Below are positions 13,101-33,530 of a stretch of 64,000 nucleotides of DNA, in pieces. The notes beneath the pieces were generated by a model. That model did not search any database, was not told the origin of the DNA, and saw only the letters and a program-made list of their open reading frames with translations. The number at the start of each line of letters is the position of its first letter. Position 1 is the stretch's first letter. The position numbers and the translations under genes are program-made. The DNA is taken from NCBI RefSeq assembly GCF_016859125.1, contig NZ_CP069338.1, forward strand, positions 2,604,001 through 2,668,000, in the 5' to 3' direction. The stretch is from Archangium violaceum (lineage in GTDB: Bacteria > Myxococcota > Myxococcia > Myxococcales > Myxococcaceae).

Positions 13101-15544
13101 GCGAAGTCGGTGATGGTGTATGCCGTCTCGGCGGCCTCCTCGAGGAGCGCCATCGCCAGCTCGCGACGGCGCGTGAGCCCCTCCGGTCCCATGAGCTCGA
13201 TTCCGAGCCGCGCATAGCCGTTCGCCGCCTGGAAGGCCGCCGAGTGCTTCGCCTTGCGACAGGCCCTCAGATTCAGCTCCGCCAGCCCGTCGCTTTCCTC
13301 CACGCCACGCGCGCGGGCCCTGCCCGCGTTCAGGTGGTTGGTGATGTCGAAGAGGTTCTTCTCCAGCAGCTCGGGGGGGCCCCGCTCCAGCAGGAGCTGG
13401 CCCATCTCCCAGTGGAGCGACGCGCGCTCCTCTTCCGCGATGAGGGAGTACGCCGCCTGCTGGATACGGTCGTGGGCGAACTTGTAGGAGACCGAGAGCT
13501 CCTGGAACAGCCCTTCCACGTCCACCGCGACGAGCTTGTAGTTGTTGTCCTGGGCGAGGATGAGCCCCTGGGCCAGCGCGGGCCAGAGGTCGGCCGCGGT
13601 CTCCCGGGAGGACTTGCGGCAGACGACGGCCAGCGAGTCCAGGTTGAACTGGTTGCCCATGAGGCCCGCGAGCATGAGCGCGCGCTGGGTACGCTCGTCG
13701 AGCGCGCGCAGCGTCTGCATCAGGAGCTCCACCACGTTGTCCGTGATGTTGCGAGCGCGAATCCGCGCCAGGTCCCATTGCCAGACGCTCCCGCCCGCCT
13801 TCGAGCGGCCTCGCGCCAGGCTGATGAGGTGCTCCGTGTACAGAGACTTCAGGAACTCCCTGAGGAAGAAGGGGTTTCCATCCGTCTTCGACAGGAGCAG
13901 CTCCGCGAGCGGCTTCGCCGCCTCCAGCGAGCAGCCGAGCGTGTCCTGGAGCATCTCCTGGATGGTGGGCAGGTCGAGCGGGCGGAGCACCAGCTCATTC
14001 ACGATGGCCCCGGCGCGGCGCAGCTCCGCCACGGACAGGGCGAGTGGGTGGCCCGGTGTCACCTCGTTATCCCGGTAGGCGCCAATCAGGAAGAGGTGCG
14101 TCAGCCCCGGGCTCAGCATGAGCTGTTGCAGGAGCCGCAGCGAGCCGGCGTCCACCCACTGCAGGTCGTCCAGGAAGAGGACGAGGGGATGCTCGCGGCT
14201 GGCGCAGGCCCCGATGAAGCGGTTCAGCACCAGGTTGAAGCGGTTCTGCGCCTCGGAGGGGCCCAGCTCGGGGACGGGCGGGACATCCCCGAGGATGAGC
14301 TGGAGCTCGGGGAGGACCTCCACGAGCACGCCCGCGTTCGGACCGAGCGACTCCGAGAGCTCCCGCTTCCAGCGCTCGATGCGCTCCGGGCTCTCCGAGA
14401 GAATCTGCCGGATGAGCGAGCGGAAGGACTGCACGAGCGACGCATAGGGGATGTCGCGCTGGAGCTGGTCGAACTTGCCCGAGATGAAGTAGCCCCGCTG
14501 CCGCGTCAGCGGGTGGTAGCTCTCCTGCACGAGCGCGGACTTGCCGATGCCCGAGTAGCCCGACACCAGGAGCAGCTCCCGGCCTCCCTCGCACACCCGC
14601 TCGACGGCCTTCAGCAGGACCGCGCTCTCCTCCTCGCGGCCATAGAGCTTCTGTGGAATCTCGAAGCGCGCGACGAGCCGCCGCTGATCCAGAGGGAACG
14701 GCTCGATGCGATGGGCCACGCTCCACTGCCGCGCGCACTCCTCGAGGTCCGCCTTGACGCCCTCCGCGGAGAGGTAGCGGTCCTCGGCGTTCTTGGCCAT
14801 CAGCTTCAAGACGAGCGCCGACAGCACCCCCGGGATCTCCGGCCGGAGGGTATCGGGCGGCGTCGGAACCCTGGCGAGGTGACAATGGACGAGCTCCATG
14901 GCGTCGTCCGCATCGAAGGGGAGCTGCCCCGTCAGCATCTCGTAGAAGGTGACGCCCATCGAGTACAGGTCGGTCCGGTAGTCGATGGCGCGATTCGTCC
15001 TCCCCGTCTGCTCGGGCGAGATATACGCGAGCGTTCCCTCCAGTACCTCGGGGCTGCGGAGAGCGGGGACCTCTCGCGAGAGCACGGCGGAGATGCCGAA
15101 GTCGATGAGCTTCGCCTCGAGCGTGGCCGGGTTCACCACCACGTTCGAGGGATTGACATCCTTGTGCATGATGTTGAGCGCATGCACCTGACTGAGCGCC
15201 TCGGCCATCTGACTGGCGAGGGCGAGGAACTCCGCGATGGACAGGCGGCGCGTCTTCAGCAGTCGGTCCATGGACTCGCCACCGAAGTCCTCCAGGACGA
15301 CGAGCCACCGGTTCTCGTAGCTCTCCAACGAGAGGGCCCGGATGACGTTGGGGACCGCCATGCTCCGCAGCAGCTCGTACTCGCGTTTGAACCAGGCGAG
15401 CCGGCTGGCGGGCGGATAGGGCTCGGCGAGAACCTTGAGGATGACTCGCGCACCCGTCACCACATGCTGCGCCCGGTAGACGAAGGAGTTGCGGCTGCGG
15501 AACAGCTCGCGATCCACTGCGTAGTCGAGGATTCTCGTCAACAT
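10145..15544 (-). CDS. Hybrid Ser/Thr protein kinase – AAA ATPase – GAF – sensor histidine kinase
   Basis: A 1,799-residue signalling giant. The N-terminal eukaryotic-type kinase (about 1–265) has the catalytic loop HKDVNPSN, where K replaces the usual R of HRD, and a DFG-type IDFGIS. Next comes a predicted ATPase with Walker A GYSGIGKS and Walker B LFLDDLQW, then a long helical-repeat region, a GAF domain (about 1370–1530), a dimerisation/phosphoacceptor helix [12 protein letters not shown], and an HATPase domain with DNGMGIP and [12 protein letters not shown]. The start ATG at 15544 gives a normal kinase N-terminus. It follows the broken catalase-like gene by 19 bases on the same strand, so it may respond to or regulate the oxylipin island. 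Such hybrids are common in cyanobacteria and myxobacteria. Confidence 0.92.
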
Positions 15545-15563: not shown

Positions 15564-16522
15564 TTAGCTGGGCTGTGGCTGGATGACCGGCGGCTTGTCC
15601 TCGAGGGGCTTGGGAACTCCGAAGAGCCGGCAGAGGAGGACCCGGGCGCTCTTCGCCATGTCGGACGCACCGCGCATGTAGTTGAGGGAGTTGTAGTCGT
15701 CCACGGATTCCGCCGGCAGCAACCCGAGCGAAGGCGGGTGGTGTCTCACCGAGAAGCGCGTCCGCACGCCGTCCTCGAACGGGAGGACCTCCTCGAGCGT
15801 CACGGTGCCCAGGTCCATATGAGGATGGGTCGCCTCGTCCCAGGCGACATTGCTGTTGAGGATCTCCGGGCTCTCCCCGGACCGCGGCGTATGGACCTGG
15901 ATTTGCAAATGATAGGTGACGGGGCCGCGCGAGAGCCGCTCGACGAGCTCCTCCTTGAGGTAGTTCGGACTGCGACTCGGATCCGTCAAATCCTCGTTCC
16001 ACCGGGTAACGAAGCGCGTCGGGACCTGCGAGTGGTAGTAGAGCTGCGTGAAGGAGTTCGGATCCTTACGACATCCATCCGCGGAGGCCAGCAGGCCGCG
16101 CGGGTACTTGTCGTAATACGTCCAGGAGTCGAGCCCCTTCACCCGGGGGTTCTTCTTCGTCACGAACTCCATGAAGCTCCTCGCCGACCAGAACAGCGAC
16201 ATGGTGCCGGTATTCATCTCGAGGTCCAAGGGGCTCTCATACTCGCTGTCCGCGAACTTCAGCGACGCGGCACGAACCAGGATGACGGTGTCGTTCGGAT
16301 AGGACACCGAGGCGTGCCGCAGCCGGCACGCGAACTCGCGTCCGGGCTCGAAGAAGTCGTGTGCGGGGAAGGTGGGATTCTCCGTCACCCGGAGCCGCCC
16401 TCGCACGGCCATACCGTTGTCGTGGGACATCCGCTGGCGTCTCAGGGAGTACCAGGCGAAAACGAACGACCCCCACCCGTACGCGCCATACTGGAGCTGC
16501 AACCGATCGAAGGAGGTGACAT
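15564..16522 (-). pseudogene. Damaged catalase-like heme protein gene (paralogue of 17957–19012)
   Basis: Close paralogue of the intact catalase-like gene 1.4 kb away on the other strand. Aligned by eye, it differs in two destructive ways. The ancestral ATG (16522) is followed, after ATGTCA, by a one-base deletion that shifts the frame at codon 3. An in-frame deletion also removes 31 residues that in the intact copy run from GKDGVLRYAKYRLIP to the Gln before TLWDEDL. Translation could restart at TTG 16502 or at the internal MSHDNG, but the missing segment corresponds to a catalase-fold strand. The distal His (SHDNG) and Asn (MNTGT) are kept. Probably non-functional or remodelled. Confidence 0.7.
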
Positions 16523-17956: not shown

Positions 17957-19012
17957 ATGTCATCCCATCTCAAACGCCTTCAGCTGTGGTGCTACTCGTA
18001 TGTTTATGCGTGGTTCGTGGTCGGGTGGTACTCCGCGAGACGCCAGCGGATGTCCCATGACAACGGTATCGCCGCGAGGGGGCGGATTCGCATCACGGAG
18101 AACCCCACCTTCCCCGCCCACGACTTCTTCGAGCCCGGACGTGAGTTCGCCTGCCGGCTGCGGCATGCGTCGGTGTCCTATCCGGATGATACCGTCATCC
18201 AGGTTCGTGCCGCGTCGCTGAAGTTCGCGGACAGTGATTACGAAAGCCCGCTGGACCTCGAGATGAATACCGGCACCATCTCGCTGTTCTGGTCGGCGCG
18301 GAACTTCATCGAGTTCGTGACGAAGAAGAACCCCCGGGTGAACGGGCTTGATTACGTGGAGTACTACAAAGACAATCCACGCGGCCTGCTGGCCTCCGCG
18401 GAAGGAGTCCGGAAGGACCCGAGTACCTTCACTCAGCTCTACTACCACTCGCAGGTCCCGCTGCGCTTCGTGGGCAAGGACGGGGTGCTGCGGTATGCCA
18501 AATACCGTCTCATCCCCGAGAATCGCGGGCCCGAGACGGGGCTCATGCCTCCGAACGCGACCCAGACCTTGTGGGACGAGGATTTGACGGATCCGAGTCG
18601 CAGTCCGAACTACCTCAAGGAGGAGCTCGCCGACCGGCTCTCGCGCGGCCCCGTCACCTATCACCTCCAAATCCAGCTCCATACGCCGCGGCCCGGGGAG
18701 AGCGCGGAGATCCTCAACAGCAATGTCGCCTGGGATGAGGCAACCCATCCCCACATGGACCTGGGCACCGTGACGCTCGAGGAGGTCCTCCCGTTCGAGG
18801 ACAGCGTGCGGATGCGCTTCTCGATGAGCCACCACCCGCCTTCGCTCGGGTTGCTGCCGGCGGAGTCCGTGGACGACTACAACTCCCTCAACTACATGCG
18901 CCGTGCCTCCAATGTGGCGAAGCGTTTCCGGCTCCTCTTCTGCCAGCTCCTCGGAGAGCGCAAGCCCCTACCAAGTGAGAGGCCAGTCGTCGCCCAGCCA
19001 CAACGAGGCTGA
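17957..19012 (+). CDS. Catalase-like heme protein (possible fatty-acid hydroperoxide enzyme)
   Basis: A 351-residue protein with catalase-fold landmarks. HDNGIAARGRIRI aligns with the catalase distal-His segment (H-A-K-G…), and MNTGTISLFW aligns with the Asn-containing NNTPVFF strand. KYRLIP and SLNYMRRAS follow the layout of minimal catalase-related proteins. The usual proximal Tyr motif RxxxY is not obvious. Short catalase-fold proteins of this kind include allene oxide synthases that work with lipoxygenases, and a lipoxygenase gene lies 4.5 kb away, so conversion of fatty-acid hydroperoxides is a reasonable inference. Its 3' end is 20 bases from the convergent CHAT gene. An inverted, broken paralogue lies on the other side of the desaturase. 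Confidence 0.72.
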   Translation: MSSHLKRLQLWCYSYVYAWFVVGWYSARRQRMSHDNGIAARGRIRITENPTFPAHDFFEPGREFACRLRHASVSYPDDTVIQVRAASLKFADSDYESPLDLEMNTGTISLFWSARNFIEFVTKKNPRVNGLDYVEYYKDNPRGLLASAEGVRKDPSTFTQLYYHSQVPLRFVGKDGVLRYAKYRLIPENRGPETGLMPPNATQTLWDEDLTDPSRSPNYLKEELADRLSRGPVTYHLQIQLHTPRPGESAEILNSNVAWDEATHPHMDLGTVTLEEVLPFEDSVRMRFSMSHHPPSLGLLPAESVDDYNSLNYMRRASNVAKRFRLLFCQLLGERKPLPSERPVVAQPQRG

Positions 19013-19032: not shown

Positions 19033-22000
19033 CTACTCCTCGGGAGACGCCCTATACAACCGGGCCTTCGCTCTACGCCGGTACTCGTCGAGACAGCCCG
19101 GGTACCGGTCCTGCCGGGCAGGCTCCTCGCGGCCCAGGCAGTGGACCATGTCCATACAATTCTCGTAGCCGGTCTGGGCTCCTGGCTCCTGCGCGCCCAG
19201 GAGGTTCATCCGTTCTTTCGGGCTGAGGCAGTAGCGCGTCGAGAGCCAGAGCGCACGACGAACCGCTTCCGGATGGATGGTCCACACGCGTGAAAGAGAG
19301 TCATCCGAAGCGGTGATGACCCGGGCGCCGTCCGGGCTGAACGCGACGGAGCGCACCGGCCCGCGGTGACCGCCGAGCACCGCCACGAGCGTGCCATCGG
19401 ACGCCCAGAGCCGCGCCGCCTCGTTCTCCGAGCCCGTCACCAGGTACTCGCCGTCCGCGCTGAACGCCGCCGAGAGCATCCTGACTCCATGAGGGTCGAT
19501 GCGGGCGACGCGGGTACCATCGGCCTTCCACACCCATGCGCTCCCCTCGTCCGAGGCCGTGATGATGCGTTGGCAATCCGGGCTGAGCGTGGCCAGGGTG
19601 ACCGCTCTCGAATGACCAGGAAGTCGGGTGACAAGGGAGCCGTCAGCCGTCCAGACCCCCACGGTGCTCTCATCCAGGGACGTGACGATGCGCAGTCCTT
19701 CGGGGCAGAACATGGCGGACAGGACCTCGCCACGGCCCTGGAACGAAGCGATGCGGCTCTTGCTGTCGAGCCTCCAGACCTGAACGCTGTCACGTCCCCC
19801 GGGTCTGGAACCCGAAACCGTGACCACCCGGGTCCCCTCTGCACTGAACGCGGCGGACGTGACCAGTTGCTCACCATGCGGGAGCTCCGCGATGAGGGCG
19901 CCGTCCTCTCCCCATACCCGTGCCTTGCTGTCACCCGAGGTGGTGACCCTGTACCTGCTTCCCTGAAACACCATCCCGCGCCCACCGTCCCTCCTTCTCT
20001 CGGTAACGAGAGAGGCATCCGACGTCCACAGCCGTGCGCTCCCATCACCCGCGACGGTGACGATGCGCGTCCCATCCGGGCTGAACCCGGCGGAGCTGGC
20101 GCCGTCCGGGTGGCCCTTGAGCTCGGCGAGCAGGGCGCCGTCCGCCGCCCACACGCGCGCGCTCCCATCGGCCGAGGTGGTGACCACGTGGCTGCCATCG
20201 GGGCTGAACGACGCGGAGTGGATCGCCCCGAGATGACCGCTGAGCATGGCCACCAGGGTACCGGTCCCGGAACCCGTCAGTCCCCAGAGCGTCGCGGTTC
20301 CATCCGCCAGGGCGGTGATGACGCGCTCGCCGTCGGCGCTCATCGCAACGGCGGTAATCCCTTCCCTGTTTCCCGGGAGCGCGGTGACGAGGGAGCCATC
20401 GGCCGTCCATACCCGCGCGGCGCGGTCGCTCGAGGTCGTGAGGATGTGCGTACCGTCCGCATTGAACGTGGCCGAGAGGAACCGCCAGTCGTGCTGGCGC
20501 TCGAGCGTCCTGAGGAGGGTGCCGTCCGCCTTCCGCACTCGCGCCGTTCCGTCCTGGACCGTGACGATACGCGCTCCATCGGGGCTCGCGCCGGCCGGAG
20601 CGATTCCCCCTCCGTGCTCCTCGAGTGGGGTGCCAGCGGGGGTTCCGTCTGGATTCCACTCCCGCACGGTCCCATCGCGCGCGTGGGCGATGATTCGTTT
20701 CCCATCGGCACTGAACGAGGCGGAACGAACCGGCTCCGAACGGTCCGTCAACTCGACCGGGGTCCGGCAACGGAACACCGGGGAAGACGCGAAGTGCGGC
20801 GCGGCCCCGACCCAGCCGCGAAGCAGCAACTCCCTGGAGTCCTCTTCCTCGACCTCTCGCAGGAGCGAGATCGCGATCTCCGGCTCGTGAGCCACTCGCA
20901 GGGCGACGGAGAGCCGGCCGGCATCACGGGCCCGTTGTGCCTGCACCCTGGCATGCCTCGACTCCATCATGCCCCACCCCCCGAGCAGCGAGAGCACCAC
21001 CGCCACCGCCAGGAGCCCCCCCAGGGCCGATTGCTTGAGCCGCCGCTTCCTCCGGACATCCGCCCGGCTCTCCTCGAGCAGCCTCTTCGTGTCGTCGTCT
21101 GGCTCCTCCGAGAAGACCCGTGCGACGTCTTCCGCCAGGCCGAGCTGCCGCTCATTGAGCAGCGCGCCATGCTTCTTCCACTCCTCGACCCTGCTCGTGA
21201 GCTCCTGACGTGCCAGGAGCCTTCCACGTTCCTCCTCCACCCACCCACGCAGCCTCCGCCAATTGCGGATGAGTGCTTCATGGGCAACCTCCACGGTCGT
21301 CGTCCTTCCATCGCCCGTGCGCACCAACAGCCGCTCATCGACGAACCGGCCAAGAATCCGCTCGAAACGAGCCCCCTCTTGCGGCTCTCGCGGCCGGACC
21401 TCCGCCAGGAGCGCCCGCCGCCGTGTATCCATCGTCGTATCGGAGTGGACGTTCACCAGCCGGAGAAAGAGGCGGCGTGCCATCATCCGCCCTGCTTCAT
21501 CGAGCTCGGCCATCCGCGCGTCGGCACGGAGGCCGAGCGCACCGCAGACGCCCCCGACCGCGTCGTAGGCCGCCTGGGTGAGCTTCCGCCCCTCGCGCCG
21601 CTGCCAGAGCATGTCCAGCGTGTCCTGGAGCAGGGGAAGCGCGCCCGGCTCGCCCTCGACGTCCTTCAGCATCCGGCGCGCGAGGCCCGCTTCCAGCGAG
21701 AGCCCCACCAGCCCGGCGGGCTCGCGGATCGCCTCCTCGAGCTGCGCCGGTGTCATCTGCGCCACGAAGACCCGGTGCGCCTCATCATACGAAACCTTGT
21801 CGAGCCGCAGCCCCTTGTCATCGAGCGTGAACTCGCCGCAGCGTCCGATGAAGTCCACGCGCAGGGTGACGAGCACCGACACTCCGGAATCGCCCTGGCC
21901 CGCCAACGCCCAGAGCCAGCGGACGAACGTGTCGCGCTCCTCCGCCGACTCCGTCTGGGTGAAGAGCTCCTCGAGCTGGTCCACCACGAGCAGCAGGGGC

Positions 22001-23418
22001 CGGCTCGCGTCCGTGCGCGTCGCCAGGGCGGCCTCCAGCGCGGCCAGCGGCTCCGCGCCGGGGCGCATCCGAGCGAATACCCACGTGGACCCGGGAGCCT
22101 GGAGCATGCGAGGTACCGCGCCCGCGAGCACCACCGAGGACTTGCCCGTGCCCGACGAACCGGCCACCACGAGGAAGCGTGGCGCTCCGGCTCTGGCGAG
22201 TGCGCCCAGGTCGTTGATGATCTCGTTGATTTCGGCGTCGCGGCCGAAGAAGAAGCGGCTGTGCTCGGGCTGGAACGCGAGCAGTCCGCGGTAGGGGCGC
22301 AGCACGAGGGGGCGGTTGTCATGGCCATCGGCTTCGCGCGCGTAGAGCTGCAGACTCGCCCAATCCAGCCGGCCGGTGTCCCGCGCGAGCTGCCTGCGCG
22401 CGGCCAGAAAGGCGCTCTCCACGGAAGAAGGGCCGCCGAACAGCTCGCGGTAGAAGGTTTCCGAAAAGCGATTGGAGCCGGGAATGGACAAGGGGAAACG
22501 CGAGGCGATGACCGCGCCAATCCCAATCTGGTGGAGCGCCTGGGCCACACTCCCGAGCTGGTTGCCCAGAACGCCGATGTCGCCGCCGTTGCACGCGGCG
22601 ATGACCACCAGCCGTACCATGCCCGCGTAGGGCGTGAGGAGCTGGCGAAGGCGGCCGGCGTCGACGACGGTGGACTCTCCCGCGGATTCGCCGTCCAGCA
22701 GCAGGCCACACGTCTGCCCCGCCGCCCCGCCATGACCCAGCAGGTGAAGCACGGAGATGGGCGTGCCCCCGGGAGCCCTGGCCGCCTCCAGGGTGTCTTC
22801 CAGCCGTCCGTAGCTGGCGTGCCCGAGGACGTCACGCCGGGTGTCGAAGGGGTAATGGCCCGCCCTCGCGCCCTCCTCGATGGCGCGCAGGTGCTCGGCG
22901 CGAGGCACGGGGCCTCCGGCGGACGACCACGCGAAGAGGACGCGCCCTCCCTCGGGACGTGGCGAGGGCGACTCGGCGGCCGTCACCGTCTCCGGCCACT
23001 CGTAGCGCACCAGCACGGAAGGCAGCTCGCCCAGATGCTGCCCGCTGGAGTCCAGGCAGAGCAGCTCCCAGGGCAGTGCGTACAGCTCCGCGGCGGCCGA
23101 GCGAAGGGTCACCACCACTGGCCGCCCACCCGACACCGCCTCGAGGAGCCGCGCCTCCTGCCTCGCCCAACCTTCCGAACCGAGGAAGTCGCGCAGCGTC
23201 CTGCCCACGCGCTGGGTGACCGCGGGGTCACAGTCCGGCTGGTGAAGCGCCGCCAGATCGCCGAGCAGCGCCTGGCTCCACGTCAGCTCGACACTCTCGG
23301 CGCCTCCGCCCGTACCGCGCAGGACATACTCCTGCCTCCCCGTGCGGAAGGCGAAGGAGTCACCCGCGTCCTCCGTACGCACGAACTCGAGCAGCAACTC
23401 ATGGGCGAACTTCGTCAT
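19033..23418 (-). CDS. CHAT protease – AAA/NACHT-like ATPase – WD40 repeat protein
   Basis: A 1,461-residue, three-part protein of the type seen in bacterial death and defence circuits. The CHAT caspase-like domain (about 100–365) has the His in HLLGHGG (H229) and the Cys in IAACNGG (C276). The ATPase has Walker A GSSGTGKS (420–427) and Walker B LLLVVDQLEE. A transmembrane-like stretch (about 800–820, LGGLLAVAVVLSLLGGWG) precedes about twelve WD40 blades (about 890–1390) and a Cys-containing tail. It is the last gene of the operon with the lipoxygenase, 41 bases upstream. Family knowledge: WD40 senses, the ATPase oligomerises, CHAT cleaves. The trigger and substrate are unknown. Confidence 0.9.
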   Translation of the reverse strand: MTKFAHELLLEFVRTEDAGDSFAFRTGRQEYVLRGTGGGAESVELTWSQALLGDLAALHQPDCDPAVTQRVGRTLRDFLGSEGWARQEARLLEAVSGGRPVVVTLRSAAAELYALPWELLCLDSSGQHLGELPSVLVRYEWPETVTAAESPSPRPEGGRVLFAWSSAGGPVPRAEHLRAIEEGARAGHYPFDTRRDVLGHASYGRLEDTLEAARAPGGTPISVLHLLGHGGAAGQTCGLLLDGESAGESTVVDAGRLRQLLTPYAGMVRLVVIAACNGGDIGVLGNQLGSVAQALHQIGIGAVIASRFPLSIPGSNRFSETFYRELFGGPSSVESAFLAARRQLARDTGRLDWASLQLYAREADGHDNRPLVLRPYRGLLAFQPEHSRFFFGRDAEINEIINDLGALARAGAPRFLVVAGSSGTGKSSVVLAGAVPRMLQAPGSTWVFARMRPGAEPLAALEAALATRTDASRPLLLVVDQLEELFTQTESAEERDTFVRWLWALAGQGDSGVSVLVTLRVDFIGRCGEFTLDDKGLRLDKVSYDEAHRVFVAQMTPAQLEEAIREPAGLVGLSLEAGLARRMLKDVEGEPGALPLLQDTLDMLWQRREGRKLTQAAYDAVGGVCGALGLRADARMAELDEAGRMMARRLFLRLVNVHSDTTMDTRRRALLAEVRPREPQEGARFERILGRFVDERLLVRTGDGRTTTVEVAHEALIRNWRRLRGWVEEERGRLLARQELTSRVEEWKKHGALLNERQLGLAEDVARVFSEEPDDDTKRLLEESRADVRRKRRLKQSALGGLLAVAVVLSLLGGWGMMESRHARVQAQRARDAGRLSVALRVAHEPEIAISLLREVEEEDSRELLLRGWVGAAPHFASSPVFRCRTPVELTDRSEPVRSASFSADGKRIIAHARDGTVREWNPDGTPAGTPLEEHGGGIAPAGASPDGARIVTVQDGTARVRKADGTLLRTLERQHDWRFLSATFNADGTHILTTSSDRAARVWTADGSLVTALPGNREGITAVAMSADGERVITALADGTATLWGLTGSGTGTLVAMLSGHLGAIHSASFSPDGSHVVTTSADGSARVWAADGALLAELKGHPDGASSAGFSPDGTRIVTVAGDGSARLWTSDASLVTERRRDGGRGMVFQGSRYRVTTSGDSKARVWGEDGALIAELPHGEQLVTSAAFSAEGTRVVTVSGSRPGGRDSVQVWRLDSKSRIASFQGRGEVLSAMFCPEGLRIVTSLDESTVGVWTADGSLVTRLPGHSRAVTLATLSPDCQRIITASDEGSAWVWKADGTRVARIDPHGVRMLSAAFSADGEYLVTGSENEAARLWASDGTLVAVLGGHRGPVRSVAFSPDGARVITASDDSLSRVWTIHPEAVRRALWLSTRYCLSPKERMNLLGAQEPGAQTGYENCMDMVHCLGREEPARQDRYPGCLDEYRRRAKARLYRASPEE

Positions 23419-23459
23419 GGGGTCTTCCGCTGCCCGCGCCGGTACCTGGGAGGGCGCCG

Positions 23460-25469
23460 TCAGATGTTGATGCTCTGGGGAACCCGGCTCGGCAGGAGGA
23501 AGGGATAGGGGCCGTAGCGGGTGTGGTTTCGCTCGGTGATGAGCGCCTCGATGTCGTCGAGCTTCTTCTGGAAGCGCGTGAGCGGCTCGCGCACCCGCTT
23601 GTCCTGGAAGCAGTCCTTCTCGTAGCGACCCAGCCGGGTGTAGATGACGCCGCCCAGCAGGTTCATGAACTCCATCTGGAGCACGGCCATCTCGAGCGGC
23701 GGGAAGTAGTCGAGGTAGTCATTGTTGTTGGCATCCTCCTCGGAGAGGGGGGCCGCGCGGTAGGAGGCGGGGGGCGTGGCCGGCGCGTACGTCAGCAACT
23801 CCGACTGCGGGGCATTGACGGCGGCGTGCTGCGCGCTGGCGGTGAAGACAATCATCGTGAGCGCCCGGCACAGGTAGTCGAGGCTCTGGATGCGCCCGTC
23901 CCCCGCGTCACCGAAGCCGGGGATGCGCCCGCCCTCCTGCGAGACGATCTCCGCCGCCCACGCCTGGAGCGCCGCGTCCGCCCGCACCTGCTCGTCGGAG
24001 CCGTAGTAGAGCTTGACGTAGGTGGTCACCCACTCCTCGATGGCGCGCCAGAGCTCCAGGGCGTCGTCGCGGTACGGGTAGTCGAGCGTGGGGCTGGTGA
24101 CGCCGCGCGCCTCGAGGTCGGTGGGCAGGAAGAGCGCGTTGAAGGGCCTGGCCAGCAGCCCCTCCGCGGAGAGCTTCCGGCTCGCCCAGATGGTGCCCCC
24201 GAGCGACTTGTCCACCTCATGGCCAGGCGCCACCAGCGTGGCCTGGGCCTTGTCGTTGATGCTGAGCGTGCCCTCGAAGTGCGGCCGCAGCAGCGTGCTC
24301 ACCGGGTGCGTGTCCGGAATGCACCGGCGCGTGGCCATGACGATGGGGCCCACCAGCAGGTGCGTGCGCGCCAGGTGGGAGATGGTCTCGTGGTGGTTGA
24401 AGTCGGCGACGGTGACCACGAGCTTCGCCCGCTTCCAGGCCTCGCCGTCGGCCGGCGTGAAGACCGGGTGGTTGCGCGGGTCCTGTCCGCACTGGATGGC
24501 CACCGGTTGCAGCCGGCGCGGCCCCGCGCCCTCCCGAGGCAGCGCGAACAGGGCGAGCGGGGCGAAGCAGTACTTGGGACCCGCGGGGAAGTTGCCATTC
24601 TTCACGCCCGCCAGGGCCTTGTAGTCACACAGGAAGAGCCGGCCCTCGGCCCCCGCCTGGGCCAGCGAGTCCCGCGTGTCGGCCATGGCGACGTGGAACT
24701 GCTCGTCGGTGACCGGGAAGTTCGCTCCCGGCGCCGTCACCCGCTGGAGCACCAGCGGATTGAAGCCCGCCACGCGCAGGTAGGCGAAGACCTCGTCGGA
24801 ATCGAAACGGTCGGCGAACCACGGCCGCTTGAACGTGGCGAACAGGCGCGCGAAGTCGTCGAGGGACTTGGGACGCCCGCTCTTCTGCGCGTTCGTCCGC
24901 TTGAGCACGAACGCGAGGATACCGAGCGGATCCGTGATGCCCTTCTTGAGGAGCTCCTGGCCGATGACCGCCAGCGTCTTGACGAGGGCGAGCCCCCCCG
25001 GGCTGGAGTCATCGCCGCCGAAGGACAGCGGTTCCTCCGCCCCGTTGGGGAGCGCCGCCGAGAGCTGCTCCGGGGACATCTGCTCGAGGTTGTCCGGAGC
25101 CACTTCGACCGCCTCGTGCGGCCTCACCTTGTCGAGCTGGAGGTCGTCGAGGCTCACGGTGCCGTGGCCCAGATCGCTGAGGTCCAGCCGGGCGGTGTCA
25201 TCATCGGAGAAGGAGAGCGCGTCATCCCAATGCATGCGATTGCGCACGGAGTCGAGGCTGAGATGGACGCACTGCATGAGCCACTTGAAGCTCGGCTTCT
25301 CCTCCTTCGGCGGGGTGTCGATCATCGCGAGGGGCGCGAGCTTCTTGTAGTTGTATTGGTACAACAGCTTCGGGTCCGCGGGAGCCGAGGAGGCGCCAAA
25401 GAGGAACGAATGGGGACTGTCATGCGCCTCGGTGGAGGCAGGGGGCGTGTTCTGGACGGGATCGGACAT
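23460..25469 (-). CDS. Bacterial lipoxygenase
   Basis: Adds dioxygen to polyunsaturated fatty acids, making lipid hydroperoxides. The 669-residue protein keeps all iron ligands expected for the family: H365 and H370 in SHLARTHLL, H548 and N552 in TASAQHAAVN, and the C-terminal isoleucine of QSINI (I669). Other hallmarks are AKLVVTVAD, DTHPVSTLLRPHF and the N-terminal YNYKKLAPLAM segment. There is no PLAT domain and no signal peptide. ATG 25469 is preceded by AAAGG. It is the third gene of a minus-strand operon (two caspase-like genes, lipoxygenase, CHAT-WD40), with gaps of 43 and 41 bases. Substrate and regiochemistry cannot be read from sequence. Confidence 0.93.
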   Translation of the reverse strand: MSDPVQNTPPASTEAHDSPHSFLFGASSAPADPKLLYQYNYKKLAPLAMIDTPPKEEKPSFKWLMQCVHLSLDSVRNRMHWDDALSFSDDDTARLDLSDLGHGTVSLDDLQLDKVRPHEAVEVAPDNLEQMSPEQLSAALPNGAEEPLSFGGDDSSPGGLALVKTLAVIGQELLKKGITDPLGILAFVLKRTNAQKSGRPKSLDDFARLFATFKRPWFADRFDSDEVFAYLRVAGFNPLVLQRVTAPGANFPVTDEQFHVAMADTRDSLAQAGAEGRLFLCDYKALAGVKNGNFPAGPKYCFAPLALFALPREGAGPRRLQPVAIQCGQDPRNHPVFTPADGEAWKRAKLVVTVADFNHHETISHLARTHLLVGPIVMATRRCIPDTHPVSTLLRPHFEGTLSINDKAQATLVAPGHEVDKSLGGTIWASRKLSAEGLLARPFNALFLPTDLEARGVTSPTLDYPYRDDALELWRAIEEWVTTYVKLYYGSDEQVRADAALQAWAAEIVSQEGGRIPGFGDAGDGRIQSLDYLCRALTMIVFTASAQHAAVNAPQSELLTYAPATPPASYRAAPLSEEDANNNDYLDYFPPLEMAVLQMEFMNLLGGVIYTRLGRYEKDCFQDKRVREPLTRFQKKLDDIEALITERNHTRYGPYPFLLPSRVPQSINI

Positions 25470-25512
25470 GGGATGACCTTTGGGATGAGAGGTGGATGAG
25501 AAAGGACAAGGC

Positions 25513-27189
25513 TCAGGAGGATGTTTCGCGGAGCTGCTCCAACGCGGCCCGCCCGGCTTCCGTGTAGACCTGCTCCCAGTTGCGCAGCTCCTTGAGGGAG
25601 ACGCCCGCCCGCTTCGCGATGTCCCTGGGGCTCTCCGCACCAGCGAGAAGCGCGCGCACGGCCTCGGCCATCACGTCCGTGCTGGGAAGAGATTCCGAGG
25701 CGGTCACCTGCATGCCGAGCACCATCGCGGCGAGGGCCTGGGCCGATGCGGCCTTCACCTCCGCCCGCGGTTGCGCGGAGGGAACCGGTAGTTGCACCGC
25801 GGGGTCCCCAAGCAGGACGTAGCCGGCCAGGTCCTGGCGCAGCATCCACAGGTGCGCTCTCTGAGCGAGGTCCACCGGGTTGGGACGTCCCCCGCGCTGA
25901 GCCTCCTCCTGCTGCTCGTAGAGCGTGGTGAGCTCGTTGTTCGCGTCCCGGAAGAAGCGCCACAGCGCGTCCAGGCCCACGCCGGCGCGGCGCCCGGCCA
26001 CCATCGAATGCAGCAGGCCCTGGAAACGGGAGGGACGGCTCCTGGCCACCGAGCCCTGCTCCTGGAAGCTGTACGACCAGGCCAGGTCCATGTGGCCGAT
26101 GACCGCCAATGGCCCCTGGGGGTTGGCGAGCACCGCCTTGGGCAGTGCGGCGACGAAGGGCCGCTCGCCCTCGCGGGGCAGCGACGCGAGCAACCCCTCC
26201 AGCCGACCCGAGAACTGGCCGGCGTCACGCAGCTGGGACAGCCACGTGTGGAAGGCGCTCCGCGAGGGCGTCCCCGCCCCGAAACAGGCCAGGTAGAACC
26301 AGAGGCCTCCCGGGAGGAAGGGCCGGCTCCCCAGCACCGCGGCGTCCAGTTGCTCCCCGCGGCCCAGGCTCATCGAGCCCTGCAGCGCGTGTTGCTCCTC
26401 CACCGAACGCCAGCCCTGGCGCGGCGCACCCAGCCCATGGCTCAAGGAGAACAGCACGCTCGGCTTCGGCGCGGCCGCCTGCTCCAGCAGCCCGTGCACG
26501 GACATGTCATCCCGGTCCCCGACCTCCAGGATGTCCCGTGCCAGGAACTCCCCCCTCGACTGGCGCTCCCGGCAGCTCTGGAGGCTGGGCGAGATGAGCG
26601 CCTGGTAGCCGAGGCTCGTCGCCCGGGTCCCATCATGCGCCGTGTAGAAGAGGGCGCGCGCCTGGGCGGGCGAGGGGCTCCTCCGCCAGCGCAGCACCTT
26701 CTCCACATAGGCCGCGTAGTCCGCGTCCCGTGAGAACGCGAGCCGCCCGACGAAGCCGTCACTGCCCAGCACCTGCTGCAGCTCGAGCGAGAGCTGATCC
26801 AGGTCGCCGAGCATGAGCAGGTAGCGGGGCTGCTCCACCTCCGGTACCGCTTCGTCGTGGAGTACGTGCTTCTTCCAGTGGACCGCCGCGGGCGCGTCCA
26901 ACCCGGGCGGCGCCCGGTAGAGGCGCACGGACGCCCCCTGCTCCTCCTGACGCAGCTTGCGCAGGGGCTCGATGAGCGTCAGGAGCCGGTCCCCGGCCGG
27001 TCCCTCCGGAGCCACCACCCCCCAGCGTTGCCTGGACAGGTCGTTGGGGTCACCGCCCGAGTCCCAGAGATGCGTCGGCATCTGGCTGGCCGCGGGCCGG
27101 GCCTGATTCAGTGTCGAGTCGAGCGGGAGCCCCTCGGCCAGGGTGGGGCGGCGGTCGTCCGCGTGCGTCAGCAGCAGCTCGAGGTCCAT
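25513..27189 (-). CDS. Clan CD (caspase/CHAT-type) cysteine-protease-like protein, copy 2
   Basis: 558 residues, paralogous to the gene immediately upstream. A His in VLFSLSHGLGAP (H251) and a Cys in FYLACFGAGTP (C302) are spaced and flanked as in the caspase/gingipain/CHAT fold, suggesting a Cys–His protease. The N-terminus shares an LELLLxHADxxxPxLxEGLP signature with the paralogue. The C-terminal 60 residues form an HTH-like tail (SPRDIAKRAGVSLKELRNWEQVY) of the transposase or adaptor type. It lies 24 bases after copy 1 and 43 bases before the lipoxygenase gene. Protease activity is inferred; the family is not one I can name. Confidence 0.75.
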   Translation of the reverse strand: MDLELLLTHADDRRPTLAEGLPLDSTLNQARPAASQMPTHLWDSGGDPNDLSRQRWGVVAPEGPAGDRLLTLIEPLRKLRQEEQGASVRLYRAPPGLDAPAAVHWKKHVLHDEAVPEVEQPRYLLMLGDLDQLSLELQQVLGSDGFVGRLAFSRDADYAAYVEKVLRWRRSPSPAQARALFYTAHDGTRATSLGYQALISPSLQSCRERQSRGEFLARDILEVGDRDDMSVHGLLEQAAAPKPSVLFSLSHGLGAPRQGWRSVEEQHALQGSMSLGRGEQLDAAVLGSRPFLPGGLWFYLACFGAGTPSRSAFHTWLSQLRDAGQFSGRLEGLLASLPREGERPFVAALPKAVLANPQGPLAVIGHMDLAWSYSFQEQGSVARSRPSRFQGLLHSMVAGRRAGVGLDALWRFFRDANNELTTLYEQQEEAQRGGRPNPVDLAQRAHLWMLRQDLAGYVLLGDPAVQLPVPSAQPRAEVKAASAQALAAMVLGMQVTASESLPSTDVMAEAVRALLAGAESPRDIAKRAGVSLKELRNWEQVYTEAGRAALEQLRETSS

Positions 27190-27213
27190 GGCTGTCTCCT
27201 CGGGTGAGCGGGA

Positions 27214-28878
27214 TTACTCCGGGATGCCGAGGGCGGCGCGGCCCGCCTTGCAATAGATGTCGGCGAGGCGCTCGAGCTCGCGGCGCTCGATGCCGTACTC
27301 CGTGGAGAGTTCCTTCATGCTCCGCTCTCCGGAGAGGATGTAGCCAATGGCTTCCTCGAGCTTCTCCACCGCGAGGGGCAACTTCGCGGGAGCCTTCACC
27401 ACCTCATGCGGCACGGGGAGCGCCGGAGGCGTGGCCAACTTCGCGCGCCTTTCCTCGACGGGGAGGCGTACGGCCGGGTCCCCGAGCATCACGTAGCCGG
27501 CGATGTCCTGCCGCATCATCCACAGATACCCACGCCGGATGAGCTCGTCATTGGACGCGGTGGCTCCCGTGCGGACATCGTCATCGTGGATGCTGGAGAG
27601 CTCGGTATCGGTGAGTGCGAGGTAGCGATACAGCTCGCGGAACCCAATGCCGACACGGTTCGAGCGCAACATCGACTTCAGCGGCTCGATGAAGCGGCCC
27701 GGGCGCTTCTTCGCGGGTGAGTCGTCCTCGCGGAAGCTGAAGGTCCAGGCGAGGTCGACATGGCCGATGAAAGCCAGCGGGCCGTTCGGGTTCGCGAGCA
27801 CCTTCTGCGGTGTGGCGGCGACGAAGGGCCTGCCCGTCCCCGCGAGCGTCTTCATCACGTCTGGCAGGCGGGAGTAGCGCCCGGCCTCGACGAGATGCCT
27901 GAGCCAGTGGGAGTACGCACTGATGTCCGGCGTCCCCGCGCCGAAGCACGCGAACATGAACCAGATGCCATTGGGCATGAACGTGCGTGAGGTCAGGTCG
28001 GACGCGGACAGCTGTCCTTCACGGCCGAAGCTCATCGCCCCCTGGCCCGCCAGCCTGTCCGCATCCGTCTTCCAGCCACCCCTGGGCGCGCCGATGCCAT
28101 GGCTCATGCTGAACAAGACGCCCGGCTCGGTGAGCGAGGAGTTCTCCAGGAAGCGATCCAGCCCCGGTTCCTGTTCCTCGCCGTGCACATGGAGGCCGCT
28201 GGCGGGGAAGCGCCCCTGGCTCAAGCCCTCCCGGATGAGCTCGAGACCTGGGTTGATGAGCGCATTGAAGCCCGCGTTGAGCGCGGGGGTTCCGTCATGC
28301 GCCGTGTGGAAGAGCATCCGGCCCAGGCCCTGACGTGGCAGCCGCTCGGCGCGCAGGACCTTCTCGACATAGGCCAGGTAGCCCTGCTCGTCGGAGAAGT
28401 GGAGCCGGCCGACGTAGCCGTCCGAGGCCTGTATCTGCTGGATGGCGAGAGGCACCTGGTCGAAGTCGCCCAGGATGAGCTGGTAGCGCGGCACATCCGC
28501 GCTCAGGTGCTCCCCCGAGTCGAAGTGCCGTTTGCGCCACAGCGCGGCCTCGGCCATGGTCATCGGCCCTTTCGGAACACGGTACTCCTTGACGGGGTGG
28601 CCCCCCTGCTGCGCGCGCCGGAACTCGATCAGCGGCCGGATGAGGTCGCGCAGGCGGTCACCTTCCGGGCCCTCGGGGAGGATGAGGCCCCAGCGCTGAG
28701 CCTCGAGGTCATTCGGGTCTCCGCCCTCGTCCCAGAAATCGAGCGGTTCAGGGACGTCGTCCTTCATCGTGGAGCGCTCCTGGGGAGTCGTGCCCGCCGG
28801 CAGGCCCTCGCTCAGAACCGGCGTATTCGTGTCGGCATGAACCAACAACAGTTCAAGAGTATCGGTCTGCTGAGGCAT
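27214..28878 (-). CDS. Clan CD (caspase/CHAT-type) cysteine-protease-like protein, copy 1
   Basis: A 554-residue first gene of the operon. Predicted catalytic pair: H260 in FSMSHGIGAP and C311 in FMFACFGAGTP, each in a hydrophobic strand followed by small residues as in caspase-fold proteases. The C-terminus has an HTH-like tail (SMKELSTEYGIERRELERLAD), matching the tail of copy 2, which could be a protein- or DNA-binding adaptor. There is no signal peptide. Nothing on this strand lies upstream within 500 bases, so the promoter should be in 28879–29400. Function inferred from fold-level motifs and from the CHAT and lipoxygenase partners. Confidence 0.75.
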   Translation of the reverse strand: MPQQTDTLELLLVHADTNTPVLSEGLPAGTTPQERSTMKDDVPEPLDFWDEGGDPNDLEAQRWGLILPEGPEGDRLRDLIRPLIEFRRAQQGGHPVKEYRVPKGPMTMAEAALWRKRHFDSGEHLSADVPRYQLILGDFDQVPLAIQQIQASDGYVGRLHFSDEQGYLAYVEKVLRAERLPRQGLGRMLFHTAHDGTPALNAGFNALINPGLELIREGLSQGRFPASGLHVHGEEQEPGLDRFLENSSLTEPGVLFSMSHGIGAPRGGWKTDADRLAGQGAMSFGREGQLSASDLTSRTFMPNGIWFMFACFGAGTPDISAYSHWLRHLVEAGRYSRLPDVMKTLAGTGRPFVAATPQKVLANPNGPLAFIGHVDLAWTFSFREDDSPAKKRPGRFIEPLKSMLRSNRVGIGFRELYRYLALTDTELSSIHDDDVRTGATASNDELIRRGYLWMMRQDIAGYVMLGDPAVRLPVEERRAKLATPPALPVPHEVVKAPAKLPLAVEKLEEAIGYILSGERSMKELSTEYGIERRELERLADIYCKAGRAALGIPE

Positions 28879-29403: not shown

Positions 29404-29803
29404 ATGCGTACGGTCGTTTTGAGTGACCTGCACCTGGGTAATGGACAAGGCTTCGACATCTTCGCGGGGACCGAGGCACTCCCCGCGTTCCTCGACTCGC
29501 AGCTCGCGCCCACCCGGGTGATGCTGAATGGAGATGCGGTCGACTTCCTGATGAACGAGGACCCCCCTCGTGCTCGAAACGGAGCGGGCGGTGCGGCAGG
29601 CGCGGGCGCTGACCGCCTGGCCCTCCACCGCGAACGTGTTCGCCGCACTCGGGCGCATCCTGTCCCGGGGCGGAGAGGTCATCATCCGCCTGGGCAATCA
29701 TGACATCGAACTGGCGCTGGCCGAAGTCCAGGAGGTGTTCCGCGAGGCACTTCGCCAGGGCGGCGTGAGGAACGGGGAAAGGCCCGTGACGCCCCGCGTC
29801 TGA
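29404..29803 (+). pseudogene. Frameshifted and truncated calcineurin-like metallophosphoesterase
   Basis: The N-terminal part has the metal motif SDLHLGNG followed by LNGDAVDFL in one frame (29404 onward). The next conserved motif, RLGNHDIEL, lies in another frame (from about 29570 to 29803). Removing one C from the run of six at 29562–29567 joins the two into a smooth protein (…NEDPLVLETERAV…). The sequence ends in EALRQGGVRNG… before the C-terminal metal-binding histidines, so it is also truncated. The gene is broken unless the C-run is a sequencing error. Confidence 0.75.
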
Positions 29804-31277: not shown

Positions 31278-33530
31278 ATGACGAGACGCGAGCTCCTCCA
31301 CTATTCGGCGCGACGGCGGCCACGGGACTGATCGGGCCCGGGTGCATCGGATGGACGCGCGAGGAGGCCATCCCGGTCGACTCCTGGCACAAGAGCGTGT
31401 GCCGCTTCTGCGGCTCGGGCTGCGAGACGCGGGTGGGCCTGCGCTACGGGAAGGTGGTGAAGGTCGAGGGCCTGCAGGAAGGGTGGAACCGGGGTCGGCT
31501 GTGCATCAAGGGCCTGCTCAACCGGGAGATTCTCTACGTCTCGGACCGGGCGCACTACCCCATGGTGCGCAAGAACGGACAGCTCGTGCGCGTCTCCTGG
31601 GACGAGGCGCTCGACGCGGCGGCCGCTGGCTTCCGTGAGGCCATCGCCCAGGGCGGGCCGGACGCGGTGGCCTTCTACGGCTCGGGACAGCTCTTCACCC
31701 AGGAGAGCTACACCGCCAACAAAGTTGTTCAAGGGCGGCATCGGGACGAACAACGTCGATGGCAACCCTCGCCTGTGCATGGCCTCGGCGGCGTTCGGCT
31801 CCAAGTCCGTGTTCGGCGCGGATGAGCCCTCGGGCCGCTACGACGACATCGAGCACGCCACGCGCTTCTTCGTCATCGGCGCCAACATGGCCGAGTGCCA
31901 CCCGGTCGTCTGGGAGCGCGTGCGCGACCGCCTCCGCACCGCGCCCCAGACACGCGTCATCGTGGTGGACCCGAGGCGCACGCCCACCGCCCGCGACGCC
32001 ACGCTGCACCTGCAGATAAGGCCCGGCACGGACGTGGCCCTGCTCAACGCCATGACCTACGAGTTGCTGCGCACCGGGCTCGTGGACCCGGCCTTCATCA
32101 ACGACTTCGTCACCTTCCGCAAGGGCACGGCGGACTCGCCGCCGCTCACCCTGGAGGACTTCCAGAAGCTCCTCGAGGACTACGCGCCGGAGAAGATGGC
32201 CAACCTGTGCGGCCTGTCTACGGCGGAGATTCGCGAGGCCGCGCGCCTCTTCGGCATCTCCCAGGCGGCGATGAGCTTCTGGACCATGGGGCTCAACCAG
32301 CAGACGCACGGCGTGGCGGCCAACCGGATGATGATGGCATTGCACCTGCTCACCGGGCAGATAGGCCGCCCCGGGACCGGGCCCTTCTCGCTGACGGGCC
32401 AGACCAACGCGGGAGGTGGCGTGCGCGACACGGGCTCGCTGTCGCACGCGCTGCCGGCCGGGCGGCTCGTCTCCAAGGAGAAAGACAGACACGAGATGGA
32501 GAAGCTGTGGGGCCTGCCCGAGGGCCGCATCTCGCCCAACCCGGGCCTGTCCGCCGTGCCACTCTTCGAGGCCATGCGCGAGGGCAAGGTCCGCGCGGCC
32601 CTGGTGATGGCCACCAACCCGGCGCGCTCGCTGCCCAACGCGGACCGATACCGCGTGGGCATGGAGAAGGCCTTCCTCGTCGTCAGCGACTCCATCTTCC
32701 CCACCGACACCGCGCAATACGCCGACGTCTTCCTCCCCGCGGCCATGTGGGCGGAGAAGGAGGGCGTCCTCTCGCAGTCCGAGCGCCGCTACCACCTGGT
32801 GGAGAAGCTGGTGGAGCCACCGGGCGAGGCTCGCTCGGATCTGGACATCCTCGTGGCGCTCGGCGAGCGGCTCGGCCATGGCGAGTTGCTGAAGGCACGC
32901 ACGCCCGAGGCCGTCTGGGACGAGTGGCGGATGATTTCGGCCGACACCCCCTATGACTTCCGCGGCATGACCTACGCGAGGTTGAAGGAGCTTCCGGGCC
33001 TCACCTGGCCCTGCCCCACCGAGCAGCACCCGGGCACCTGCCACCGCTACGTGCCAGGAGAGGATCCGCTGGCGAAGAAGGAGGGGCGCATCGACTTCTA
33101 CGCCCGGCCGGACGGACGCGCCATCGTCTACCTCTCCGAACAGGGCCCCTTCCGGGAGAGCCTCACGAGCGACTACCCGATGACGCTGACCACCGGGCGC
33201 CGGTTGGAGCACTGGCACACCGCCACCCTCACGGGACGGATTCCCCAGCTCCAGGGCATCGACATCGACTATCTCGAAATCCACCCCGGCGACGCGGCGG
33301 TGATGGGCGTGAAGGAGGGGGACATGGTGCAGGTGACGAGCGCGCGCGGCTCGGTGCGACTCAAGGCGTTGCCCAGCATGCGGGTGAGGCCCGGCGTGGT
33401 GTTCGCGCTCATGCACTCGATGGAGCACCTGGTGAACGCGGCGACGAGCGACTACCAGGACCCCACCTCCGCGCAGCCCGAGTACAAGCTGGCCGCGGTG
33501 GGCGTGGAGCGCGTGAAGGAGGGCACGTGA
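31278..33530 (+). pseudogene. NapA-like molybdopterin oxidoreductase with two frameshifts
   Basis: Encodes a periplasmic nitrate-reductase-type enzyme. The twin-arginine start is MTRRELLHYS. Then come CRFCGSGC and a later RLCIKG forming a [4Fe-4S] site, FYGSGQ, LCMASA, DEPSGRYDDIEHA and LTTGRRLEHWHT, as in NapA/NasA. As given it needs two shifts: one G appears missing after TATTCG near 31307, and one A is extra in AAA at 31721–31723, which restores the original frame. Either the gene is inactivated or both homopolymer sites are read errors. The stop overlaps the start of the tetraheme cytochrome gene (ATGA), showing operon structure. NapB and NapD are not present nearby. Confidence 0.8.

What the first reader, a model, noticed from the sequence alone, without database searches (positions are those of the whole stretch)
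19033..28878. Operon joining two caspase-type proteases, a lipoxygenase and a CHAT–ATPase–WD40 protein
Four minus-strand genes separated by 24, 43 and 41 bases encode two paralogous proteins with a caspase-fold His/Cys pair, a lipoxygenase with all five iron ligands, and a CHAT protease with sensor (WD40) and ATPase modules. CHAT/NACHT-like/WD40 proteins are known in bacterial conflict and cell-death circuits; lipoxygenases make membrane-damaging lipid hydroperoxides. I know of no described system that puts lipid peroxidation under caspase-like proteases. It may be a regulated, ferroptosis-like death or defence module, or a signalling oxylipin pathway.
Basis: partly seen in the sequence, partly recalled or inferred. 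Interest (0 to 1): 0.88.

Follow-up and report, generated by a model that had tools for sequence, protein, structure and literature searches.

The report
Protease cascade genes beside oxylipin genes
In this Archangium-type soil bacterium, a likely stress- or phage-triggered protease pair sits beside a fat-oxidising enzyme; the protease pairing is widespread, but the fat-oxidising partner was found in only a few relatives and the four-gene run only here, so a protease-controlled lipid-damage switch is possible but unproven.

Summary
The four genes exist as described. The two 'caspase-type' proteins are not caspases (C14). They belong to a cytosolic gingipain-fold (C25-like) family with a conserved His/Cys pair. 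Its real partner is CHAT: in 11 genomes of one or two contigs, 26 of 28 family genes lie within 10 kb of a CHAT domain (0.67 expected). In related loci the protease sits in CBASS-type operons with SAVED-CHAT, CD-NTase, E1 and JAB genes and a DdvA-like anti-sigma factor. This resembles the published SAVED-CHAT proteolytic cascade.

The lipoxygenase link is narrow: 5 of 96 family genomes, two genera. In the other four the lipoxygenase lies on the opposite strand, so the four-gene run was seen only here. Yet one divergent protease clade and one lipoxygenase clade coincide in those five genomes and stay adjacent although their surroundings differ.

Outside the given coordinates, two genes related to coral allene oxide synthase (AOS) and a desaturase-like gene lie beside the run. 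AOS-like genes occur in 3 of 96 genomes (plus one weak partial match), all three with the lipoxygenase-protease pair; the haem-ligating tyrosine seems lost, so activity is doubtful.

Verdict: observation confirmed; interpretation partly supported. A protease-gated oxylipin or lipid-peroxidation module remains open.

The parts
27214..28878 (-). C25-like (gingipain-fold) cytosolic cysteine protease homologue 1 (P0001), lipoxygenase-specific clade, His260/Cys311, weak helix-turn-helix-like tail
25513..27189 (-). C25-like protease homologue 2 (P0002); AlphaFold2 model pLDDT 89.8; nearest solved fold gingipain R (Z 26.3, residues 53-471); H251/C302; weak helix-turn-helix-like tail
23460..25469 (-). 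lipoxygenase, 669 aa, five iron ligands, no hydrophobic segment found
19033..23418 (-). CHAT - nSTAND1 ATPase - hydrophobic segment (799-817) - WD40 protein (P0004)
29404..29758 (+). relic of a calcineurin-type metallophosphoesterase gene, frame-shifted and cut short; in relatives an intact gene (about 459 aa) lies beside a C25-like gene
17957..19012 (+). catalase-related allene-oxide-synthase-like protein (P0005), convergent with P0004
16661..17560 (-). fatty-acid desaturase / hydroxylase superfamily protein (PF00487; nearest NCBIfam is a carotene hydroxylase, below cut-off)
15564..16502 (-). second catalase-related allene-oxide-synthase-like protein (P0006), with an internal deletion
10145..15544 (-). 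giant Ser/Thr kinase - AAA - GAF - histidine kinase; its best-scoring homologue in G002 and G005 lies beside an AOS-like gene, in G032 and G033 beside the P450 next to the lipoxygenase-protease pair

Best explanation
A clan-CD protease module joined, in a few Archangium-group lineages, to lipid-oxidation (oxylipin-type) genes. Model: (1) P0004, probably membrane-anchored, senses a signal through its WD40 part and oligomerises through nSTAND1, bringing CHAT domains together (inferred from the families). (2) CHAT cleaves and switches on the C25-like proteases, as SAVED-CHAT is said to switch on PCaspase (inferred by analogy and from genome-wide linkage; not shown). (3) The activated C25-like proteases cut cell proteins, as executioners or to change gene expression (inferred). 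(4) In this lineage a divergent protease is kept together with one lipoxygenase clade, near AOS-like or P450 genes, so that lipid hydroperoxides or oxylipins become part of the response (inferred, the weakest step). Shown here: the genes, conserved catalytic residues, protease-CHAT linkage, coincidence of the protease and lipoxygenase clades in 5 of 96 genomes. The confidence given is for steps 1-3 as the core function; step 4 I put at about 0.3.
For: 26 of 28 C25-like genes in 11 genomes lie within 10 kb of a CHAT domain; 22 of 24 clusters, against a maximum of 4 in 5000 random placements. Three distant relatives (27-29% identity) on plasmids of other phyla also lie within 10 kb of CHAT genes (the fourth plasmid hit was not opened). 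In Nostoc the order C25 and two CHAT-nSTAND1-WD40 genes is co-directional. In relatives the protease sits with CD-NTase (14 of 79 loci), E1 (11), JAB (7) and SAVED-CHAT genes, and with DdvA-like and sigma-factor genes (31 of 79 each). Fold: gingipain R, Z 26.3. Lipoxygenase: one clade (100/100) and one C25 clade (100/100) come from the same five genomes. AOS-like genes in 3 of 96 genomes (a fourth has a weak partial match), all three among those five (hypergeometric 7e-5, relatedness ignored).
Against: No biochemical, expression or phage data. The lipoxygenase is convergent with the protease in four of five genomes, so co-transcription is not conserved. Lipoxygenase was found in 4 of 79 family loci and 0 of 39 loci outside the family. 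P0004 is not a fixed member; no CHAT relative was found near the pair in G032. The five AOS-like sequences aligned seem to lack the haem-ligating Tyr (its place is recalled), and P0006 has a deletion. The five genomes are related, so co-occurrence may reflect one or two events. No PADLOC model hit the C25-like proteins scanned, apart from a 14-bit match to a tail segment of P0002.
Confidence: 0.5

Rival explanations
1. The lipoxygenase is a passenger: a separate oxylipin gene that became adjacent to the protease genes and moves with them, without functional coupling.
For: Convergent orientation in 4 of 5 genomes; 0 of 39 outside loci have it; 20 of 20 fetched loci of other lipoxygenases show no BLAST hit to the C25-like, CHAT-nSTAND-WD40, separate-CHAT, metallophosphoesterase or AOS-like references.
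Against: The pair stays adjacent in two genera while neighbours and order differ; both clades come from the same five of 96 genomes.
Confidence: 0.4
2. Ferroptosis-like defence or death operon: proteases trigger lipoxygenase-driven membrane peroxidation on infection.
For: Co-directional four-gene run with gaps of 24-43 bases; relatives of the proteases in CBASS-type operons; all lipoxygenase ligands kept.
Against: The run was not seen in the four other genomes with the pair; no CD-NTase among the 14 window genes scanned by Pfam; polyunsaturated substrate in this strain not examined.
Confidence: 0.15
3. Signalling oxylipin pathway: desaturase-like, lipoxygenase and AOS-like genes (or P450 in G032/G033) make a developmental or predation signal, and the kinase and proteases regulate it.
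For: Two homologues of the coral AOS domain (P0005 E 1.5e-64; P0006 its paralogue) and a desaturase-like gene within 10 kb of the lipoxygenase; P450 beside the pair in G032/G033; best-scoring kinase homologues at these places.
Against: Haem Tyr apparently lost in the five AOS-like sequences aligned; the desaturase-like gene is closest to a carotene hydroxylase model; no allene oxide synthase among the 60 P450 chains shown of 179 matched.
Confidence: 0.25

Closest known systems
SAVED-CHAT / PCaspase cascade (Steens et al. 2024, Science; paper not held; seen only as cited in passages of PMC11229360 and PMC11417357; the PCaspase detail is recalled)
   Same: CHAT protease genes paired with a second caspase-fold protease; in relatives the CHAT partner is SAVED-CHAT inside CBASS-type operons
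   Different: Here the CHAT partner carries nSTAND1 and WD40 instead of SAVED; no CD-NTase among the window genes scanned; homology to PCaspase itself could not be tested
Gingipains, peptidase family C25 (1cvr, 4ief, 4rbm)
   Same: Fold over residues 43-472 of the model (Z 25-26), His/Cys order, Pfam C25 match in 45 of 55 members
   Different: No signal or membrane segment found; 13-15% identity; helix-turn-helix-like tail; CHAT-linked
DdvA CHAT anti-sigma factor with ECF sigma factor DdvS (8rot; DdvS/DdvA passages in PMC4374960)
   Same: F981, next to C25-like genes in 31 of 79 loci, is DdvA-like (one member tested, E 2.2e-169)
   Different: Not seen among the window genes scanned
Coral AOS-lipoxygenase fusion protein (1u5u, 3dy5; coral origin recalled)
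   Same: Catalase-related AOS-like genes and a lipoxygenase in one locus
   Different: Separate genes with a CHAT gene between; haem Tyr apparently replaced; the lipoxygenase scores higher with chains 8x8f and 4g32 (bacterial origin recalled)
EACC1/EACC2 caspase-containing conflict systems (PMC8195603, passages read)
   Same: Caspase-type protease, ECF sigma factor and variable partners in multicellular bacteria
   Different: C25 instead of caspase; no EACC component was looked for

Membership tests
Peptidase family C25 (gingipain) | catalytic His and Cys | tested here: met
   H 84 of 85, C 82 of 85; both intact in P0001 and P0002
Peptidase family C25 (gingipain) | Pfam curated cut-off | tested here: not met
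   P0002 22.2 and P0001 14.1 of 23 bits; 45 of 55 relatives match at E 0.01 or better, best 1.3e-12
Peptidase family C25 (gingipain) | gingipain fold | tested here: met
   Z 26.3, 302 residues, rmsd 3.2; Foldseek E 9.3e-9 to gingipain K
Caspase family C14 | Pfam Peptidase_C14 match | tested here: not met
   none in P0001/P0002; the three C14 matches in the genome lie elsewhere
PCaspase of SAVED-CHAT systems | sequence homology to the Haliangium protein | not testable with these tools
PCaspase of SAVED-CHAT systems | genetic pairing with SAVED-CHAT | tested here: inconclusive
   met in relatives, not seen at the window locus
CBASS | CD-NTase in the locus | tested here: inconclusive
   present in 14 of 79 family loci; none among the 14 window genes scanned by Pfam; the other window genes were not scanned
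Lipoxygenase | family model and five iron ligands | tested here: met
   185 bits, cut-off 23.6; ligands
Catalase-related allene oxide synthase | sequence homology | tested here: met
   E 1.5e-64 to 1u5u over residues 20-317
Catalase-related allene oxide synthase | haem-ligating Tyr (position recalled) | tested here: not met
   N, D, T, S or N at that place in five sequences; the alignment to 1u5u ends two residues before it, so the place rests on counting on
Four-gene operon | conserved co-direction | tested here: not met
   0 of 4 other genomes with the pair

The most novel reading that the evidence does not exclude
A bacterial analogue of inflammasome-to-lipid-peroxidation signalling: an nSTAND-WD40-CHAT sensor protease activates gingipain-fold executioner proteases that release or activate a lipoxygenase, whose lipid hydroperoxides (modified by AOS-like proteins or P450) kill the cell or warn its neighbours.
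Probability: 0.2. Interest if true: 0.92.

Novelty: new variant of a known kind. Interest (0 to 1): 0.62.

Why it matters
It gives a large, testable family of CHAT partner proteases with a gingipain fold, some inside CBASS-type operons, and names a few genomes where such a protease is tied to a lipoxygenase. If the proteases control the lipoxygenase, bacteria would join caspase-like cascades to lipid oxidation, a link otherwise discussed (as far as I recall) in animals and plants. It also shows coral-type AOS-like genes near a lipoxygenase in a myxobacterium.

Tried and rejected
Rejected: classical caspase (no C14 match); a four-gene operon as the conserved unit; P0004 as part of the linked pair (its 69% homologue in G002 lies beside the right-flank genes, without protease or lipoxygenase); phage carriage (no match to P0002 in the phage collection).

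Led nowhere: PDB sequence search with P0001 alone (only a chance-level match) and with the 55-row profile (gingipain R only at E 1.3); NCBIfam for the proteases; paper searches for lipoxygenase with 'CHAT domain' (0 papers), 'peptidase C25' with 'CHAT domain' (0), 'CHAT domain' with sigma factor and Myxococcus (0), gingipain with CBASS (1, on P. gingivalis phages, listing seen). A wider search listed a cell-death review, PMC8866957, that holds both 'lipoxygenase' and 'caspase-like'; I saw the listing only. These searches cover an open-licence library only. The Nostoc haem-peroxidase gene near a C25-CHAT pair had no PDB match at 1e-3. Promoter and terminator scan uninformative (1 promoter-like site, 0.5 expected; 6 terminator-like, 3.3 expected). 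No tRNA in the window. GC content gave no clear sign of recent transfer, though the AOS-like genes are lower (62.7 and 63.9%, window 68.5%).

Against a strict reading: in G054 and G070 lipoxygenases of another group lie roughly 10-14 kb from a C25-like gene; I did not follow them. The lipoxygenase tree holds 25 sequences, not every lipoxygenase; distances between lipoxygenase and C25-like places were compared by eye. In that tree the window lipoxygenase groups with G032/G033 rather than with its own genus, weakly (84/69). The kinase search scored 59 of about 500-630 candidates per genome.

Dropped before counts: a 65-residue C25-like fragment in G002 (28 of 29 places used) and one CHAT match on the other contig of G035 (144 of 145 used); L039, which overlaps L038 (79 of 80 loci counted); 37 of the 76 loci, most of them in the taxonomic family already counted, left out of the 'outside' set (39 used); six sequences outside 440-600 aa left out of the C25 tree (79 of 85 rows). 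For the dyad check of the wider set I entered 69 of the 76 loci, one was out of frame, and 65 of the 68 left show the Cys pattern; 65 of these 68 went into the structure alignment. The labels 'MPE' and 'LOX' printed were wrong and were not used. CHAT-family counts by BLAST can be hits to the ATPase or WD40 part; the Pfam-based count is the firm one. CD-NTase hits rest on BLAST; PADLOC confirmed the ones scanned from L066, L072, L093 and L096, and a further one in L104; one of the two hits in L112 is weak.
Full report
OBSERVATION. Four minus-strand genes at 27214-28878, 25513-27189, 23460-25469 and 19033-23418 are separated by 24, 43 and 41 bases. The lipoxygenase start is the ATG at 25469; the longer GTG frame would overlap the gene before it. 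Codon-usage gene calling selects all four (its codon model was trained on these same genes, so the independent support is conservation of the homologues). The window lies at 2.604-2.668 Mb of a single-contig 12.68 Mb genome.

THE PROTEASES. P0001 and P0002 are 45% identical. They hit no Peptidase_C14 model; the best peptidase family is Peptidase_C25, sub-threshold for both, with a weak helix-turn-helix-like tail. Across the family 45 of 55 members match C25 at E 0.01 or better, best 1.3e-12, and three of four distant plasmid relatives are annotated 'C25 family cysteine peptidase'. The AlphaFold2 model of P0002 has pLDDT 89.8 and pTM 0.83. Its best solved matches are gingipain R and K (Z 25.3-26.3, 302-321 residues, both subdomains), followed by TPR-CHAT at Z 16.1 and separase at 15.8; metacaspase scores 10.8 and MALT1 paracaspase 9.6 over about residues 170-471. 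Strands ending at 249 and 300 are followed by H251 and C302, the clan-CD order as I recall it. His is kept in 84 and Cys in 82 of 85 sequences; in 65 of 68 sequences of the wider scan the Cys pattern is intact. No signal or membrane segment was found.

THE PROTEASE PARTNER IS CHAT. The family occurs in 42 of 96 genomes of the taxonomic family and in 24 of 289 genomes of the class of a Nannocystis genome. In 11 genomes of one or two contigs, 26 of 28 family genes lie within 10 kb of a Pfam CHAT match, 0.67 expected; for clusters 22 of 24, the maximum in 5000 random placements being 4. The two exceptions belong to a distant subgroup beside a metallophosphoesterase. The arrangements differ: CHAT-nSTAND-WD40 beside the protease; a separate CHAT gene followed by an nSTAND-WD40 gene, convergent with the protease; and sigma factor, zinc-finger/TPR/CHAT protein, small protein, protease, SAVED-CHAT. 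One member of the zinc-finger/TPR/CHAT family was tested and is a homologue of the anti-sigma factor DdvA (E 2.2e-169 to 8rot). Neighbours include CD-NTase (14 of 79 loci), E1 (11) and JAB (7) by BLAST. PADLOC confirms SAVED_CHAT (2.3e-114 and 1.7e-58), cyclases (for example 8.7e-118 and 2.8e-81), E1-E2 (1.4e-127 and 3.2e-189) and JAB (6.7e-55) for examples from eight loci. So part of the family sits in CBASS-type operons. On plasmids of Sinorhizobium, Nostoc and Planktothrix, relatives of 27-29% identity also lie near CHAT genes.

PRECEDENT. [quoted passage not shown] The original paper is not held. I recall that there SAVED-CHAT cleaves and activates a second caspase-like protease, PCaspase, in Haliangium, and that the pair was described as taken from CBASS. 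Whether this family is PCaspase could not be tested.

THE LIPOXYGENASE. It is a full bacterial-type lipoxygenase with five iron ligands. Fifty-three of 96 genomes have some lipoxygenase. Linkage within 5 kb to a C25-like gene occurs in five: G000, G002, G005 (one genus) and G032, G033 (another). In the four others the lipoxygenase is on the opposite strand, convergent with the protease. In a 25-sequence tree the five linked lipoxygenases form one clade (100/100). In a 79-sequence protease tree P0001 and its four linked relatives form one clade on a long stem (100/100). The pair stays together although surroundings differ: the homologue of the right-flank gene 31725-33530 is at 4.09 Mb in G033 and 0.01 Mb in G002 (with a broken second copy at 12.48 Mb), whereas the pair is at 2.79 and 1.36 Mb. 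In G002 that flank carries a 69% homologue of P0004 with neither protease nor lipoxygenase. So the four-gene run looks like a local assembly. The 20 fetched loci of other lipoxygenases show no hit to the protease, CHAT, metallophosphoesterase or AOS-like references. A metallophosphoesterase that accompanies the second protease in relatives survives here only as a frame-shifted relic at 29404-29758.

OUTSIDE THE GIVEN COORDINATES. Next to P0004 lie two proteins related to the allene oxide synthase domain of the coral AOS-lipoxygenase (P0005, E 1.5e-64; P0006, its paralogue) and, between them, a desaturase-superfamily gene. AOS-like genes were found in three of 96 genomes, apart from one weak partial match in G052: G000 (three copies), G002 and G005. 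All three are among the five lipoxygenase-protease genomes. At each of these places a giant kinase gene is adjacent. The best-scoring homologue of the window kinase in G002 and G005 is the one beside the AOS-like gene, and in G032 and G033 the one beyond the P450 next to the pair, although runners-up score nearly as high. The AOS-like sequences keep the region of the distal His and Asn (recalled), but the place of the haem-ligating Tyr (recalled) holds N, D, T, S or N. The desaturase-like gene is nearest to a carotene hydroxylase model. The oxylipin reading is therefore suggestive, not shown.

MECHANISM. The best-supported core is a CHAT-initiated, C25-executed protease module. For the window: WD40 sensing and nSTAND1 oligomerisation bring CHAT domains together, CHAT activates the C25-like proteases, and these cut targets. 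The lipoxygenase may be a target, a parallel effector or a passenger. None of the steps was measured.

NOVELTY. The CHAT plus caspase-fold protease theme is known; the gingipain-fold partner family in myxobacterial CBASS-type loci may be the known PCaspase. I found no paper in the held library that has lipoxygenase together with 'CHAT domain', or 'peptidase C25' together with 'CHAT domain'. I rate it a new variant of a known kind.

Noticed in passing
window 17957-19012 and 15564-16502: Two coral-type (catalase-related) allene-oxide-synthase-like genes around a desaturase-like gene; a third copy at G000:C1:10670253; the haem Tyr seems to be replaced in the five sequences aligned.
   Followed up: partly
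L066, L068, L071, L073, L074, L086, L095, L096, L104, L105, L112: CBASS-type operons that also hold a sigma factor, a DdvA-like CHAT anti-sigma factor and a C25-like protease.
   Followed up: partly
L065 8563-9201, L073 10843-11178: Small protein families (about 220 and 80-160 aa) between the DdvA-like and C25-like genes, without any Pfam match for the one scanned; possible adaptor or substrate.
   Followed up: no
L221 7758-9533 (Nostoc sp. MS1 plasmid): Animal-type haem peroxidase gene upstream of a C25 protease and two CHAT-nSTAND1-WD40 genes; may be another oxidising partner.
   Followed up: partly
G054:C1:206454-221539 and G070:C1:260611-273676 (C25 side in L085, L089): Lipoxygenases of another group lie roughly 10-14 kb from C25-like genes.
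   Followed up: no
window 36508-37446 and 39174-40106: Type VI immunity TsiV-like protein (PF11876) at 36508; the second gene starts with a similar sequence.
   Followed up: no
L059 9541-11019, L060 9585-11117, L113 8599-12264: C25-like members that have lost the catalytic Cys (two) or both His and Cys (one); possible regulators.
   Followed up: no
L213, L218 (G002): The right-flank region with a P0004 homologue is present near both ends of the held G002 sequence, possibly a duplication or an assembly overlap.
   Followed up: no
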